Under the pieces are notes generated by a model. The model did no database searches and was not told the origin of the DNA. It saw nothing but the letters and a program-made list of their open reading frames with translations. 64,000 nt of DNA from Prosthecobacter debontii (GTDB taxonomy: Bacteria; Verrucomicrobiota; Verrucomicrobiia; Verrucomicrobiales; Akkermansiaceae). Every line of letters begins with the position of its first letter. Position 1 is the stretch's first letter. Position numbers and translations under genes: made by a program. Below, piece by piece: positions 5,599-48,738 of this stretch. The stretch is from positions 1 through 64,000 of the forward strand of contig CAMCBV010000001.1 in assembly GCA_945873125.1 (NCBI GenBank), read 5' to 3'.

Positions 5599-5976
5599 AT
5601 GAATGAGAGATTTCAAAACTCCGACCTCAAAATTGCTGTCGAGAGTGTGATGCGCGATTACCAAGGCGCACTCGTCAATCAACCTCTGCCATCCGCATTG
5701 TCGACGGGCTACGCCGATCTCGATCAAAAACTTGATGGATTGCGACCCGGGCTACATGTGCTCGCTGGGAGATCGCAGATGGGGAAAACCACTTTGGTGC
5801 TGAATATGGCGGATCACATCTGCTTTGAACAAAAAGTGCCATCCCTCATCTTTTCGATGGAATTGAGAGTCGCAGAAATCATGCGACGCATGCTGTTTCC
5901 CAAATCCTTCCTCGATCCCTTTTATCGTGACCGCAACCCTAATCCCGTCTCATTAGGGTCAGGTGTCGCATATTAA
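5599..5976 (+). pseudogene. Truncated DnaB-like replicative helicase C-terminal domain (RecA-type ATPase)
   Basis: STGYADLDQKLDGLRPGLHVLAGRSQMGKTTLVLNMADHICFEQKVPSLIFSMELRVAEIMRRML: DnaB Walker A and following strand; the frame ends within a palindrome and lacks the remaining motifs. Confidence 0.65.
5937..5976 (+). repeat. REP-like palindrome with conserved-looking tail (CCCTAAT...ATTAGGG TCAGGTGTCGCATATTAAC)
   Basis: Perfect 7-bp inverted repeat followed by GTCAGGTGTCGCATATTAAC, resembling Y1-transposase (RAYT)-associated REP sequences. Confidence 0.35.
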
Positions 5977-5989
5977 CACGTCTTAGCTG

Positions 5990-6130
5990 CAGCACTTCTT
6001 GAACTTGTGCCTGCTATCTCACGGACTTTGCGGCGGCGGCAGCTCTCGATGAGGGTATACCAGATGGCGTTGGTTTGTCCGGCGGTTTCACTGCCCAGAG
6101 TGAGGGTTGAATTACCAAAGGAGTGAGGTG
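5990..6130 (-). pseudogene. IS66-family transposase remnant (C-terminal fragment)
   Basis: Minus-strand FGNSTLTLGSETAGQTNAIWYTLIESCRRRKV resembles the IS66 TnpC C-terminus (GSE.AG...A..YTLIESCRRR.IDP..YL..VL); it degenerates afterwards. Confidence 0.55.
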
Positions 6131-6264
6131 TTAGCACTGAGCTTTTATCTTTCCGTAAGAGGCTGGAGGAATGACGACAGGCTATGGTGCCAATCCCAAC
6201 AACTCGGATGCACACGACGGCTTTCCGAGACAAGAAAGATGATAATAGTGCTCCAAAGGCGTGA

Positions 6265-7866
6265 TTATTCTTCCTCTGCTCCGCCGAGGGTTACGTTGAT
6301 GTTGTATTTGTTTTGAAGGTGGGCGTGAGCTTTGCTTGCTTGTTCAGCCTTGGAGTAGCGCTTGCAGGTTAGCTGGAAAGTGCGAATGGCTTTCTCTTTT
6401 TCACCGGCTTCTTCGTAAGTGAAACCGATTTGGAGCGTGGCTTCAGGGGCGGCTTTGTCGACGACTTTGATTTGGTTATAGAGCAAGATGGCCTCGTCAT
6501 GCTCTCTGAGCCGGCGGTGACAGCTTGCCATCCGGAAGTGATTTTCCGGAAAGCGGTCAACTTGGCGGTAGGTGGTGATGGCTTTTCGCCAATCAGAAAG
6601 CTTTTCGTAACATGATGCGATGGACCAGAGGTAATCCCCAGCATGGTCGCCATCTATTTCGATCAGCTTTCGGTAAACCTCCATGGCATCTTTGATTTTT
6701 CCTTCCTCAAGATCCATGCCAGCGATGTTTTTAAGGCCCCCGACCTGATCCTTGAACTCGCCATAGATGCGCCGCGCCTCGGGGCGTTTGTCGTGAGACT
6801 TATACCATTGAGCCATATTTCCAAGTAAGCTGTCGTCACGACCAAAGCGCGCGCCGATCTCAGTATAGATCTTCCATATTTCGGAGGGGCGGCCCAGCGT
6901 GCCGTTGAGTCCGGCTGCACGGTAAAGCAAATCCTTTTCCATCATAGGGCGGCGCGAGGACTCGACGCGGAGTTCGGTGAGGAGTTGGTCGCCAAGCTTG
7001 AGGGCAGCGATGCGGGTTCCTGGGTTTCCTAGCAGGTGATTCACAGTCTTCGTTGACATGTCGTAGACCGCATCAAAAAGTGCGTCGCCTTCGTGGGTGG
7101 TCGCGAGTGCTTTTTTCCCTTCGACGAAATTTTGGGCGAAAAAGTGGATTTGGGCGAGTTCGCGGCTGGCTTCTGCGCAGGCGGTTTTTGATTTTTCGTT
7201 GCGCTCCACCGTGTAGGTGAGATCGTTGAGAATGGAGAGTTGTTCGACTTCATCTTTCTGAAGGCGGGCGTAATGGAGGAGGTCGAGGCGGGAGCGGATC
7301 GCGATCTCGTGGCTCGGGTATTCTTTGATCAGAAAGCGAAAGGCTTTTTGTGCGTCCTTGACCTCACCCATCGTGCGGTATGCATCGGCGATGCAGTAAG
7401 CGGCTATCGTGGCTTCTTCCGAATCTGGCCAGTAGTCGATGACAGACTGGAAGCCATCACGCAGCGCGGTTTTGGGTTTCTTGAGATGCATCATGGAGTG
7501 GCTCCACATGAGTTGCGCGTATGGGGCTCCGGGACTTTTCTCGTAGAGGGTGAGAAATTTCTCGAACTCAGCGAGGGAGGTTTTGAAATCGCCGTTGGTG
7601 TAATGCTTTTCTGCGATACGCATTTGATAACGCTCGACCTCCTTCATTTTCTCAAAGGTGGCGATGGGAATACGCTCCAACGGCGAAAGTTCCGCTAGTG
7701 CGCCAACCCTGAGCAGCAGTAGGCAAAGGGCTAAGAGATTTGGTAAGCGAAAGGTTATGATGCGGATTGCGAACCGCATGCCGGATCGGGCTTGTTTTTT
7801 GCCACGGTGGTTCAGTGGTCGAATTACTTCTGTGGGGGCTATCATTCTTTCGTGGTTTCGAGCCAT
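6265..7866 (-). CDS. TPR-repeat protein
   Basis: 533 aa with TPR-like units (LAEFEKFLTLYEKSPGAPYAQ, AQKAFRFLIKEYPSHEIAIRSR, AIRTFQLTCKRYSKAEQASKA); last gene of the minus-strand operon. Confidence 0.8.
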   Translation of the reverse strand: MARNHERMIAPTEVIRPLNHRGKKQARSGMRFAIRIITFRLPNLLALCLLLLRVGALAELSPLERIPIATFEKMKEVERYQMRIAEKHYTNGDFKTSLAEFEKFLTLYEKSPGAPYAQLMWSHSMMHLKKPKTALRDGFQSVIDYWPDSEEATIAAYCIADAYRTMGEVKDAQKAFRFLIKEYPSHEIAIRSRLDLLHYARLQKDEVEQLSILNDLTYTVERNEKSKTACAEASRELAQIHFFAQNFVEGKKALATTHEGDALFDAVYDMSTKTVNHLLGNPGTRIAALKLGDQLLTELRVESSRRPMMEKDLLYRAAGLNGTLGRPSEIWKIYTEIGARFGRDDSLLGNMAQWYKSHDKRPEARRIYGEFKDQVGGLKNIAGMDLEEGKIKDAMEVYRKLIEIDGDHAGDYLWSIASCYEKLSDWRKAITTYRQVDRFPENHFRMASCHRRLREHDEAILLYNQIKVVDKAAPEATLQIGFTYEEAGEKEKAIRTFQLTCKRYSKAEQASKAHAHLQNKYNINVTLGGAEEE

Positions 7867-44364: not shown

Positions 44365-45366
44365 CTACCTGGTCGCAGCAGGCAACCATGCGCGTGCGCC
44401 TGTGCTGCGGCGTTGGCAGTCCTTAAAAAATCCGTTGAGACCCTGCCGTGTTTGCAGGTCTTCGATGGCTTCGGCGGCTTTTGGGTAGCGCCAGCGGAAA
44501 CCCGCTTCGCGCAGCCTCAAAGGATCCGCCCACCGGCTTTTCAGGATCAGCTCCGTTTCCGATTTCATGAAAAACGCACCGATTTTCAGCATCCACTCGG
44601 TTGCCGGAAGCCCGAAGGGCATTCCCATGGTTTCACGGAAACACTTCATGAGCTCGCGATTGGTGGGGAAATTGGGTGCGGTCACGTTGATCAAGCCTTC
44701 AATGAATGGATCGCGCATTAAAAAATCCACAGATCTTAAAAAATCTTCCATGTGGATCCAGCTGATGCGCTGAGTGCCTTTGCCCATAGTTCCGCCAAGC
44801 GCATTTTTGGTCAGATTGCCCAAGACATCATAAACGGTTTCAGGTTCGTTGGCCAAAACCATCCCGATGCGCATCGCAATTTTTCGGGTTTCTGCCGGTA
44901 TTTTTGCGGCGAAGAACGCGTCTTCCCATGCGGCCGCCACTTCACAGGAAAAACCCTCACCCATGATTCCATGCCATTCGTTTTGTGCTTTATCTTCCGC
45001 ATGGCGATACCATGTCGCGGTGCTTGAGTTGATCCATAATTTCGGAGGAACACGGCATGCGGCGATAGCCTTGCCAATGACTTGAGTGGATTTCACCCGA
45101 CTCGCAAGTATATCCTCGCGATTCTTTGCGTTGTAGCGGCAGTTCACACTGCGCCCGGAAAGATTGATCACCAATTCAGCTCCTTCAAGAGCGTAGGCCC
45201 AAGGTCCGATGGTTTCTCCGTCCCATTTTAAAAACATGCCGTCGCCGCTCCAGCCCTTGCGGTTTCTCGCGATCGCGACGACCTCGCGGCCGTTTCTTGT
45301 AAAGTGACGGCAAAGATAGCGGCCGAGAAATCCGTTGGCGCCGATGATGACTACTGTCGTGTTCAT
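44365..45366 (-). CDS. TIGR01777-family NAD-dependent epimerase (YfcH-like)
   Basis: TTVVIIGANGFLGRYLCRHFTRNGREVVAIAR...ELVINLSGRSVNCRYNAKNREDILASRVKST...ISWIHMEDFLRSVDFLM. Confidence 0.88.
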   Translation of the reverse strand: MNTTVVIIGANGFLGRYLCRHFTRNGREVVAIARNRKGWSGDGMFLKWDGETIGPWAYALEGAELVINLSGRSVNCRYNAKNREDILASRVKSTQVIGKAIAACRVPPKLWINSSTATWYRHAEDKAQNEWHGIMGEGFSCEVAAAWEDAFFAAKIPAETRKIAMRIGMVLANEPETVYDVLGNLTKNALGGTMGKGTQRISWIHMEDFLRSVDFLMRDPFIEGLINVTAPNFPTNRELMKCFRETMGMPFGLPATEWMLKIGAFFMKSETELILKSRWADPLRLREAGFRWRYPKAAEAIEDLQTRQGLNGFFKDCQRRSTGARAWLPAATR

Positions 45367-45380
45367 AACAAGTGGCTGGT

Positions 45381-45911
45381 TTAGCCGAGTAATTTCGAAG
45401 CGATTTGCAGCGCGAAGCTGTGTTTCATCGCGGCAACGCGATCTGACAAATGAGAAGCCATGCCGACAAAATCCTGAAGCTCGCTGACTTGTTTATGGAA
45501 CGCCCTTGCATCTTCTCCCTTGAGTCCTTTGGTCTCCTCGGCACATTTGCTGAGCAGTGCCAGCGCGGGCTCGATCTCGCGGCGTTTGCGCTCACGGGCG
45601 ATGATTCGAAAAATTTGCCATACGTCTTTTTCGGCTTCGTAGTAGTCGCGGCGATCGCCTTTGATTACCACCATTCTCACCAGTCCCCATGCGACCAATT
45701 CCTTAAGATTCGTATGGGCATTGCCCCGGCTGATTTCCAGTTCCTCCATGACCTCATCCGTGCACATCGACTGGGGTGAGATCATCAACAAAGCATGGAT
45801 CTGAGCCATGGTGCGGTTGATTCCCCACTGGGTTCCAAGTGCGCCCCATTGCGCGATGAATTCTTCCTTGGATTCTTTTAATCTGTCACTGCTGGCATTC
45901 ATATTTTTCAT
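45381..45911 (-). CDS. GbsR/MarR-family transcriptional regulator
   Basis: GALGTQWGINRTMAQIHALLMISPQSMCTDEVMEELEISRGNAHTNLKELVAWGLVRMVVIKGDRRDYYEAEKDVW. Confidence 0.88.
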   Translation of the reverse strand: MKNMNASSDRLKESKEEFIAQWGALGTQWGINRTMAQIHALLMISPQSMCTDEVMEELEISRGNAHTNLKELVAWGLVRMVVIKGDRRDYYEAEKDVWQIFRIIARERKRREIEPALALLSKCAEETKGLKGEDARAFHKQVSELQDFVGMASHLSDRVAAMKHSFALQIASKLLG

Positions 45912-46016: not shown

Positions 46017-46388
46017 TCAGAGCGATGCCTTGATGGAATCGAACTGGGCGCGTTTGGCTTTCAGATCACGCTCGAGCTTTTCGATCTCCTTGCCGAGAGA
46101 AAGCAGGCTGTTCAATTTTTTCTCCATGCTGCCCTTGGTGGAGACAGCTTTGCTTGCGGATTTGGCAGTTGTTTTTTTGGCGCCTTTCGCAGCAGCCTTG
46201 CCAGTGGATTTACCTCCCGATTTCTTAAGCCATGTGGCGATGGTGAGTTGTGATATACCGAATTTTTTTGCCGCTGTGAGTTGCCCGCCGCGTTTGTTCT
46301 TGGCGTTATGCTCATTCACGAATGCGATGATCTTGCTTTTTTCCTCAGCGCTATAGCGCTTGCCGCGAATTACTTTTTTCGTGCTCAT
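46017..46388 (-). CDS. Transposase-type HTH protein with Lys/Ala-rich histone H1-like linker and coiled-coil
   Basis: KRYSAEEKSKIIAFVNEHNAKNKRGGQLTAAKKFGISQLTIATWLKK then SGGKSTGKAAAKGAKKTTAKSASKAVSTKG then LNSLLSLGKEIEKLERDLKAKRAQF. Confidence 0.7.
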   Translation of the reverse strand: MSTKKVIRGKRYSAEEKSKIIAFVNEHNAKNKRGGQLTAAKKFGISQLTIATWLKKSGGKSTGKAAAKGAKKTTAKSASKAVSTKGSMEKKLNSLLSLGKEIEKLERDLKAKRAQFDSIKASL

Positions 46389-46459: not shown

Positions 46460-47581
46460 TTAATATGATGATAACTTTTCAAATAATAACAAATCATCCA
46501 ATCGGGTGATCCAAGCTTCCGCGCCATGCTTCACTTTGTCGCGTGTCACCACACCGCCGAAGCCAATCATCAAATCCACATCCGGCTTGGTTTCCAGATC
46601 CGATGTGCCATCGCCAATCATCAATACTTTTTCCGGAAGCATTGCGGCTTTCCATTGCCGGATGATTTCGTTTTTCCCCAAGTTGCGTGTGGTTGGGTAG
46701 TTTTCACCATAGCCAGCATAGTTGCCTGAAGCGTCGAAATAAAGCGGCACGGCCTCGACATGCTCGATGCCAAGTTGATCCGCGAATGGGCGGATGACGG
46801 GCTCGAAACCACCGGACAGAATTACCGGAGTCCAGCCCTGCTCGCGCGCGTGTTGAATGAGTTTTTGCGCACCATCCACAATGTGATCGATGTAGCATCG
46901 GCTCACTTCGCGGGCCATGCCGAGGTTGGGGCGAATGATCTCCATGCGCTTTTTGAAAACTTCATCCAGCGGAATATCCCCGTTCATCGCGGCGTTGGTG
47001 AGATTCACCACTTTCTCGAATATCGCAGGATCGGATAGCCGTGCTAATTCATCGATGCCTTCGATTGAGCTGAGTGTGGAATCACAATCCAGGAACAATA
47101 GTTTATTTTTGGTCTCTCGCATGGGATGGATGATAACTTCGGTTTGATTGTGTATTATATCGAAGAGGGTGATGATTTCCTCGTTGCGCATCCGAATGCA
47201 GCCATGGCTGGCGGGGCGGCCGATCTTTTCCTCATGGTTGGTGCCATGGATGTAGATAAACCGATCAAAGGTGTTTTGGTTTTCCGGGTCCTTGCCGGTG
47301 AGCCGGAGAATGCGTGTGAGTATGAGATCGTCGTTGCAGGAGATATTTGAATTCCAGATTCCAGCAGGCTTTCTGGATTTGAAAATGGTTCCTACTGGGG
47401 CATCGGCACCGATTTTTTCGCAGATCTCGAAATTTCCGGTGGGTGTGCGATAGCTGCCATCGAGGAAACCCATTCCTTTCGCGCTGGATGATATGGCGAA
47501 TGTTTTCAGTGTCGTCTCGCCCGCGATCACGCGCAGAGTCTGATCGTCTAGTGAAATTTCGATGCGTGGCTTCTCGTTCAT
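46460..47581 (-). CDS. Fusion: L,D-transpeptidase (YkuD) catalytic domain plus SerB-like HAD phosphatase
   Basis: N-terminal FIYIHGTNHEEKIGRPASHGCIRMRNEEIITLFD (HG...SHGCIRM); C-terminal LLFLDCDSTLSSIEGIDELARL...PVILSGGFEPVI...KVLMIGDGTSDLETKPDVDLMIGFGG. Confidence 0.85.
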   Translation of the reverse strand: MNEKPRIEISLDDQTLRVIAGETTLKTFAISSSAKGMGFLDGSYRTPTGNFEICEKIGADAPVGTIFKSRKPAGIWNSNISCNDDLILTRILRLTGKDPENQNTFDRFIYIHGTNHEEKIGRPASHGCIRMRNEEIITLFDIIHNQTEVIIHPMRETKNKLLFLDCDSTLSSIEGIDELARLSDPAIFEKVVNLTNAAMNGDIPLDEVFKKRMEIIRPNLGMAREVSRCYIDHIVDGAQKLIQHAREQGWTPVILSGGFEPVIRPFADQLGIEHVEAVPLYFDASGNYAGYGENYPTTRNLGKNEIIRQWKAAMLPEKVLMIGDGTSDLETKPDVDLMIGFGGVVTRDKVKHGAEAWITRLDDLLLFEKLSSY

Positions 47582-48738
47582 GAGATTGTGTGAAAGACAG
47601 CCAAAGCATTGTGTCCGCCCATCCCGTGGGCAAGTTTGAACACGGGTCCGATTAGAGATATGGATTGGTAGGGTGCGGATAGTTCGCCCAATCCGGATGT
47701 GCCGTGTAAATTCTGCGGGAGAATTCCTTGTCTCATGAAGGCTAACAGGATCGCGCTTTCAAGAAGCCCGCTCGCGCCGACCGTGTGGCCGATATAGGGT
47801 TTGAGCAAATGAAGTGTGGGGCGGGATCCGAGTGCGGCGGAGTTCAGGAAATGTTTTTCGGCACGCGCTTGGGTTTGGGTTCCGGTGGCGTGGGGGCAAA
47901 CCGCAGTAGGCTTTCCGCAAACGGCGATCGCTTTTTTCAGGAGCTGAGAAGTTCTTCCGCCGTCCTTTGGAATTCCCACGGGGTCGGCGCCGTCAGAGTT
48001 ATTGGTAAAAAACGAGAGTCTTAATTTTTCCGAAGGGGTTGAGGCGAGTGCAATCGCCGCCGCGCCTTCACCCGGGAGGAATCCATCGCTTTCCGGTGAG
48101 AAAGGATTGAGAAACGCTGAGCTTCCAAGTAGGCCAGAGGCTGCGTAGTTATCGAGCAAGAGCGGGACCAACGGAAGATCGACCGCCACCACCAGGGCGC
48201 GTTCGGCTTGACCGGAATCGATAAGAAGTTTCGCGATTCCAAGCGCATCGAGTCCTGCTGAGCAACCGCTTGCGACAACATGGTTCGGACCGTGGATGCC
48301 GAGCTCGATGGAGATGGCGGTGGCAGGTTCGCTGTGAATTGTATTGCTTGCCGCCATTAACTTGAACGGGCGTCTGTTTGGCCATTCGCCCAGCCAGCCT
48401 GCAGCGTTGCCGCGGCTTGTGCCAACGACCAGCGCGGCTCCTGCAAGTTCATCTTTGCTCCAGCCAGCCTCCGCAGCCGCTTGCTTCGCAACATGGAGAG
48501 CGGCCATGGTCACGGGACTCCATTTGCGATGATTGAGAAGCTCCCTCGGCTGAATCCATGCGCCATGAAGGTGGGCGTGCGGGCTTTCGTTTCCGAGAAG
48601 ATTTCCAAGGGGCTGAATCCCCGAAACGCCGGAGGAAATGGCCATGAGATGCGATGCAACATCATGGCCAAGGGCCGAGAGCGTGCCGAGTCCTGTAATG
48701 GAAAGTGCGGAAGTGATGCACTCGGTTAGCAAGCTCAC
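47578..48738 (-). CDS. Beta-ketoacyl synthase family protein (FabF-like)
   Basis: VVASGCSAGLDALGIAKLLIDSG (Cys), CPHATGTQTQARAE (His), LKPYIGHTVGASGLLESAI (His); SDGFLPGEGAAAIAL. Confidence 0.88.
   Translation of the reverse strand: MSLLTECITSALSITGLGTLSALGHDVASHLMAISSGVSGIQPLGNLLGNESPHAHLHGAWIQPRELLNHRKWSPVTMAALHVAKQAAAEAGWSKDELAGAALVVGTSRGNAAGWLGEWPNRRPFKLMAASNTIHSEPATAISIELGIHGPNHVVASGCSAGLDALGIAKLLIDSGQAERALVVAVDLPLVPLLLDNYAASGLLGSSAFLNPFSPESDGFLPGEGAAAIALASTPSEKLRLSFFTNNSDGADPVGIPKDGGRTSQLLKKAIAVCGKPTAVCPHATGTQTQARAEKHFLNSAALGSRPTLHLLKPYIGHTVGASGLLESAILLAFMRQGILPQNLHGTSGLGELSAPYQSISLIGPVFKLAHGMGGHNALAVFHTIS

What the first reader, a model, noticed from the sequence alone, without database searches (positions are those of the whole stretch)
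46460..47581. L,D-transpeptidase fused to a SerB-like HAD phosphatase in one polypeptide
The N-terminal ~155 aa carry the YkuD catalytic signature (HGTNHE...SHGCIRM). After a short linker the C-terminal ~215 aa carry all HAD motifs (DCDST, SGG, K, GDGTSDLE). No signal peptide is evident, although L,D-transpeptidases normally act in the periplasm on peptidoglycan. A cytoplasmic YkuD domain coupled to an amino-acid or phosphate-ester phosphatase suggests a novel function or moonlighting, or an alternative start or export route.
Basis: partly seen in the sequence, partly recalled or inferred. Interest (0 to 1): 0.7.

Follow-up and report, generated by a model that had tools for sequence, protein, structure and literature searches.

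The report
Cell-wall recycling enzyme fused to SerB
One bacterial protein carries both a cell-wall-recycling cutting enzyme and what looks like the cell's only serine-making phosphatase; the join is real, old and shared by dozens of related species, and relatives that lost the phosphatase half carry other candidate serine-making enzymes, one of them a family with no assigned function.

Summary
Window 46460-47581(-) is a single 373-aa ORF: a YkuD domain (residues 5-151) plus a SerB-like HAD-IB phosphatase (about 160-365), with all catalytic residues kept. It is not an assembly error: 69 of 387 genomes of the order carry it in one frame, in three genera of one family, under purifying selection. 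Outgroups keep two genes; in a fourth genus the two genes lie in frame, separated by one stop codon.
A leaderless cytoplasmic YkuD enzyme is already known: ElsL, an L,D-carboxypeptidase of cell-wall recycling. This genome has no LdcA but has Mpl, so an ElsL-like role fits; no export route is needed. The HAD half is probably the cell's phosphoserine phosphatase: only SerB-like gene, substrate-binding Glu and Arg invariant, serA present.
Strongest support: most relatives that lost or wrecked the HAD half carry ThrH and/or DUF1015. DUF1015 and an intact SerB-like HAD never co-occur (59 genomes). DUF1015 occupies the HAD's gene slot in three genomes, and its predicted fold matches only free-serine kinases in the PDB.
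So: a new domain combination of known enzymes, probably fused by operon adjacency. The DUF1015 link is the more surprising by-product. All functions are inferred.

The parts
46460..47581 (-). ElsL-like YkuD / SerB-like HAD fusion, 373 aa
   Evidence: single ORF; Pfam and NCBIfam domains; AF2 pLDDT 88.4, pTM 0.81
47129..47569 (-). YkuD domain, residues 5-151; H112 and C128 catalytic
   Evidence: PF03734 66.9 bits; H112, G113, T114, G127, C128 invariant in 75 sequences
47105..47128 (-). short linker, residues 152-159
   Evidence: between domain ends; same length in aligned fusions
46487..47104 (-). SerB-like HAD-IB phosphatase domain, residues 160-365 (D165, D167, E174, R212, S256, K303, D324, D328)
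   Evidence: Foldseek best hit human PSPH, E 1e-20, TMt 0.87
47578..48738 (-). beta-ketoacyl-ACP synthase-like gene directly upstream; stop overlaps the fusion start by 4 nt
   Evidence: PF00109/PF02801; C-H-K-H residues kept, ATGA overlap in 41 of 52 loci
46017..46388 (-). downstream small lysine-rich helix-turn-helix-like gene, conserved neighbour
   Evidence: matches in most loci; HTH_28 in a homologue

Best explanation
A cytoplasmic two-headed enzyme. The N-terminal YkuD domain works as an ElsL-type L,D-carboxypeptidase that removes the terminal D-Ala from recycled cell-wall tetrapeptides, so that Mpl can reuse the tripeptide. The C-terminal HAD domain is the cell's phosphoserine phosphatase, the last step of serine synthesis. 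The two became one protein once, by loss of the stop codon between neighbouring genes of a KAS-elsL-serB operon. Shown here: the fusion, its conservation, its grouping on the tree, the residues, the genome context. Inferred: both activities and the operon-to-fusion route. No functional coupling between the two reactions is shown, and none is needed.
For: Fusion: 69 of 387 genomes, genera g1 (43), g19 (16 of 16), g21 (10 of 10). Separate genes in outgroups; YkuD and HAD adjacent and in frame across one stop plus 3-6 nt in 11 g24 genomes; KAS-YkuD-HAD as three neighbours in g25. Tree: fused forms plus nested HAD losses are one group. dN/dS 0.06-0.20 in intact HAD and 0.09-0.18 in YkuD. YkuD as ElsL-like: leaderless, while the six other own YkuD proteins inspected have leader or lipoprotein N-termini; no LdcA; Mpl 418 bits; ElsL is a leaderless cytoplasmic YkuD LDC with orthologues in Verrucomicrobia (PMC8649774). 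HAD as PSP: only SerB-like gene found in the genome; SerA 589 bits; counterparts of Mj PSP E20 and R56, which bind the amino and carboxylate groups (PMC6321591), invariant in all intact copies; fold closest to human PSPH. Replacement: ThrH (14 genomes) and DUF1015 (22 genomes) never co-occur with an intact SerB-like HAD (32 genomes; Fisher 9e-12 for DUF1015); on the tree 4 supported independent pairs, none contrary. In the G014/G016/G022 clade ThrH and DUF1015 are present and the HAD is deleted or has lost its motifs, with dN/dS 0.39 against 0.11 for its own YkuD.
Against: Both domains score below the curated cut-offs of NF040925 (107 vs 270) and TIGR00338 (105 vs 144; 0 of 59 relatives reach it). 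The lipoprotein paralogue in the same genome scores higher on the ElsL model (126), so that score alone does not show an LDC. SerC was not identified with certainty: TIGR01364 absent, and a class-V aminotransferase scores only 66 bits on serC_3 and resembles BhcA/PhnW more. G030 lacks SerB-HAD, ThrH and DUF1015. AmpG and other recycling genes were not searched.
Confidence: 0.72

Rival explanations
1. The HAD half acts on another phosphate ester, such as histidinol phosphate or a recycled muramyl sugar phosphate, and merely resembles SerB.
For: Genes annotated as PSP were proposed, on mutant fitness data, to be histidinol-phosphate phosphatases in several bacteria (PMC5764234); below the SerB cut-off; linkage to a recycling enzyme would suit a sugar phosphatase (recalled: MupP is a HAD).
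Against: The carboxylate-binding Arg, of no evident use for histidinol phosphate, is invariant; exclusive with ThrH and with DUF1015, whose predicted fold is serine-kinase-like; without it a serA-bearing genome would have no SerB-like gene. Histidine genes were not searched.
Confidence: 0.12
2. The two domains are functionally coupled: one regulates or orients the other, linking cell-wall recycling to serine supply.
For: Long retention of the fusion in three genera; confident two-domain model.
Against: HAD deleted or degraded several times while YkuD stays conserved, so YkuD does not need it; no shared metabolite; SerB-like domains stand alone in outgroups.
Confidence: 0.1
3. The protein is exported by an unrecognised route and is a true L,D-transpeptidase.
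For: The Pfam family name; the catalytic Cys/His are intact.
Against: No leader in any aligned copy and no upstream start in the window; sibling YkuD proteins do have leaders; a phosphatase of cytoplasmic type is attached; ElsL precedent.
Confidence: 0.03
4. Sequencing, assembly or gene-calling artefact joining two genes.
For: Two adjacent in-frame ORFs exist in genus g24.
Against: 69 genomes, several in single contigs, purifying selection across both halves.
Confidence: 0.01

Closest known systems
ElsL, cytoplasmic L,D-carboxypeptidase of Acinetobacter baumannii (PMC8649774; NF040925)
   Same: leaderless YkuD domain with catalytic Cys, genome without LdcA, Mpl present, orthologues reported in Verrucomicrobia
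   Different: fused to a phosphatase; scores well below the NF040925 cut-off; activity not tested
Phosphoserine phosphatase SerB / human PSPH (TIGR00338)
   Same: HAD-IB motifs, substrate-binding Glu and Arg, fold (TMt 0.87)
   Different: below the SerB cut-off; carries an N-terminal YkuD domain instead of ACT domains or nothing
Fusions of SerB-like HAD domains to other enzymes, e.g. Dunaliella DsGPDH (PDB 6iuy)
   Same: SerB-like HAD joined to an unrelated enzyme
   Different: different partner; glycerol metabolism
Secreted L,D-transpeptidases (e.g. B. subtilis YkuD, E. coli LdtE)
   Same: YkuD fold and Cys motif
   Different: they act outside the cytoplasm; this one has no leader, and in its family the His of SHGC is often replaced

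Membership tests
ElsL-class cytoplasmic L,D-carboxypeptidase | YkuD domain with catalytic Cys and His | tested here: met
   H112 and C128 invariant in 75 sequences
ElsL-class cytoplasmic L,D-carboxypeptidase | no signal peptide | tested here: met
   domain starts at residue 5; no upstream start; by inspection, no predictor available
ElsL-class cytoplasmic L,D-carboxypeptidase | score above the NCBIfam NF040925 cut-off | tested here: not met
   106.7 vs 270; the exported paralogue scores 125.7, so it is not filed as a member of that model
ElsL-class cytoplasmic L,D-carboxypeptidase | removes D-Ala from cytosolic tetrapeptides | not testable with these tools
   consistent context only: no LdcA, Mpl present
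Phosphoserine phosphatase (SerB) | HAD motifs and PSP substrate-binding Glu and Arg | tested here: met
   invariant in 42 fused, 15 adjacent and 7 standalone copies (gaps at contig ends apart), lost in 2 degenerate ones
Phosphoserine phosphatase (SerB) | score above the TIGR00338 cut-off | tested here: not met
   105 vs 144; none of 59 relatives reaches it
Phosphoserine phosphatase (SerB) | fills the serine pathway in its genome | tested here: inconclusive
   SerA present, sole SerB-like gene, exclusive with ThrH/DUF1015; SerC not identified with certainty
Phosphoserine phosphatase (SerB) | phosphoserine phosphatase activity | not testable with these tools
   needs an assay
Secreted L,D-transpeptidase | export to the periplasm | tested here: not met
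   no leader by inspection of the sequence

The most novel reading that the evidence does not exclude
The phosphatase half is a replaceable module: in relatives its job, phosphoserine to serine, is done by DUF1015 (PF06245), a free-serine-kinase-like protein that moves the phosphate from phosphoserine to a nucleotide (SerK run backwards). This would be an unrecognised way of making serine and could explain genomes with serA and serC but no serB.
Probability: 0.4. Interest if true: 0.75.

Novelty: new variant of a known kind. Interest (0 to 1): 0.5.

Why it matters
It is a join, unreported in the held library, of a cell-wall-recycling enzyme and an amino-acid biosynthesis enzyme, with the steps from operon to fusion still visible in relatives. 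The repeated loss of the phosphatase half gives a natural experiment that points to DUF1015 as a serine-pathway enzyme. 'serAC without serB' is stated as an unresolved puzzle for many Firmicutes (PMC7478625).

Tried and rejected
Export or alternative start: no start codon upstream in frame. Assembly error: rejected by 69 genomes. Literature on a YkuD-HAD fusion: 0 papers. Literature on DUF1015 and serine: 0 papers; DUF1015 is mentioned in only 2 papers, whose titles and abstracts show no link to serine (not read further). SerC by TIGR01364: none in the own genome. Sequence relatives of DUF1015 in the PDB: none significant; only the fold comparison gave an answer. The genome-contig scan with the protein returned only two close relatives.

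Full report
CHECK. Window 46460-47581 on the minus strand is one 373-aa ORF. Residues 5-151 match YkuD (66.9 bits) and 160-330 match HAD/Hydrolase families. The best NCBIfam models are ElsL for the N-terminal half (106.7 bits) and SerB TIGR00338 for the C-terminal half (105 bits), both below their curated cut-offs. The nearest PDB sequences are human phosphoserine phosphatase and, more weakly, B. subtilis YkuD. AlphaFold2 on an alignment of 29 fusions gives a confident two-domain model (pLDDT 88.4, pTM 0.81). Foldseek puts the HAD half on human PSPH (E 1e-20, TMt 0.87) and the YkuD half on 1y7m (E 4e-10).

NOT EXPORTED. The ATG overlaps the stop of the upstream ketoacyl-synthase gene (ATGA), and the frame upstream has no start codon for 59 codons. 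All 29 aligned fusions start within a few residues of the domain. Six other YkuD proteins of the genome that were inspected carry hydrophobic or lipobox N-termini. This is by reading the sequences; no signal-peptide predictor was available.

DISTRIBUTION. Of 387 genomes of the order, 69 hold the fusion in one open frame: 43 in the window's genus, 16 of 16 in g19 and 10 of 10 in g21. In 11 genomes of g24 the two genes are adjacent and in frame, separated by one stop codon and 3-6 nt before the ATG of the HAD gene. In g25 KAS, YkuD and HAD are three neighbouring genes. In the other families examined HAD and YkuD are apart. In family f6 the YkuD domain is instead fused to the ketoacyl synthase (584 and 583 aa). 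No fusion outside these three genera appeared among 388 genomes of the phylum.

ORIGIN. On a KAS+YkuD tree, with the HAD columns left out, all fused forms and five HAD-less forms are one side of a branch. The HAD-less forms are nested in it, so they are best read as secondary losses (G017+G025; G006; G030; G014). This is a quick tree with many open forks, and KAS is missing for many outgroup rows; exact counts of losses are approximate.

SELECTION. dN/dS is 0.06-0.20 for the intact HAD and 0.09-0.18 for YkuD in pairs of fusions. In G016/G022, where the HAD has lost its catalytic residues, dN/dS is 0.39 for the HAD and 0.11 for YkuD. Some synonymous distances are near saturation, so the values are rough.

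YKUD FUNCTION (inferred). ElsL of Acinetobacter is a leaderless cytoplasmic YkuD L,D-carboxypeptidase of muropeptide recycling; orthologues were reported in all Verrucomicrobia orders (PMC8649774). The window's genome has no LdcA and has Mpl, so a recycling LDC is expected. Caveat: the exported lipoprotein paralogue scores higher on the ElsL model, so the argument rests on leader, context and precedent.

HAD FUNCTION (inferred). It is the only SerB-like gene found, beside a full-length SerA. [quoted passage not shown] PSP-like HADs can be histidinol-phosphate phosphatases (PMC5764234); the conserved carboxylate-binding Arg argues against this.

REPLACEMENT TEST. An intact SerB-like HAD was found in 32 of 59 genomes, ThrH in 14 and DUF1015 in 22. 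Neither ThrH nor DUF1015 ever occurs with an intact SerB-like HAD (Fisher 9e-12 for DUF1015). Relatedness inflates that figure: 4 supported independent pairs exist, essentially all in the expected direction and none contrary, which cannot reach p 0.05. 13 of 14 ThrH genomes also have DUF1015. Exceptions with none of the three: G030 (92% complete) and G019 (59% complete); in G023 and G034 the fusion is cut by a contig end. In G006, G017 and G025 a DUF1015 gene sits directly downstream of YkuD, in the place of the lost HAD; the G025 copy is only 19% identical to that of G006, and those of G017 and G025 score lower on the DUF1015 model. The model of the G006 DUF1015 (pLDDT 93.4) matches only free-serine kinases in the PDB: nine hits at E <= 0.001, eight labelled as free serine kinase or SbnI and one (1vk1) a Pyrococcus protein of unassigned function (TMq only about 0.35, so part of the protein). 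SerK is an ADP-dependent free-serine kinase (PMC5120207). That DUF1015 converts phosphoserine to serine is therefore an inference from exclusivity, position and fold; the kinase direction is not excluded.

JUDGEMENT. The fusion is real and a new combination of known enzymes; the likeliest cause is operon adjacency, with no evidence of functional coupling. The by-product, DUF1015 as a candidate serine-pathway enzyme, deserves more attention than the fusion itself. Novelty is judged only against the held papers and libraries.

Noticed in passing
L056:6040-7356, L057 (DUF1015 within 5748-7589), L058:6081-7331; absent from the window's genome: DUF1015 genes replace the SerB-like HAD directly downstream of YkuD; DUF1015 is exclusive with intact SerB-like HAD in 59 genomes, and its predicted fold matches only free-serine kinases.
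   Followed up: partly
L064:4459-6213, L080:4290-6041: In another family (f6) the YkuD domain is fused to the C-terminus of the ketoacyl synthase, the same gene that lies just upstream here; the reason for the KAS-YkuD link is unknown.
   Followed up: partly
L034:1501-2577, L036:1498-2634: Fusions whose HAD half has lost most catalytic residues but is still open in frame.
   Followed up: yes
window 46017-46388: Small lysine-rich HTH-like protein, a conserved downstream neighbour, often with a doubled repeat in relatives.
   Followed up: no
window 47198-47209 (SHGC motif): The His of the YkuD SHGC motif (H126) is variable in this family (H 50, Q 10, C 9 of 75) although the Cys and the first His are invariant.
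   Followed up: no
G000:C17 (L004:1447-2034): A lipoprotein-type paralogue of the YkuD domain, about 40% identical, scores higher on the ElsL model than the leaderless domain.
   Followed up: partly
G030: A 92% complete relative with SerA but no SerB-like HAD, ThrH or DUF1015.
   Followed up: no
L033:1501-2615: In G010 the fusion is broken inside the HAD by an apparent frameshift; may be an assembly error.
   Followed up: no
window 44365-45366 and 45381-45911: TIGR01777-type oxidoreductase and MarR-like regulator downstream, conserved in a subgroup of relatives.
   Followed up: no
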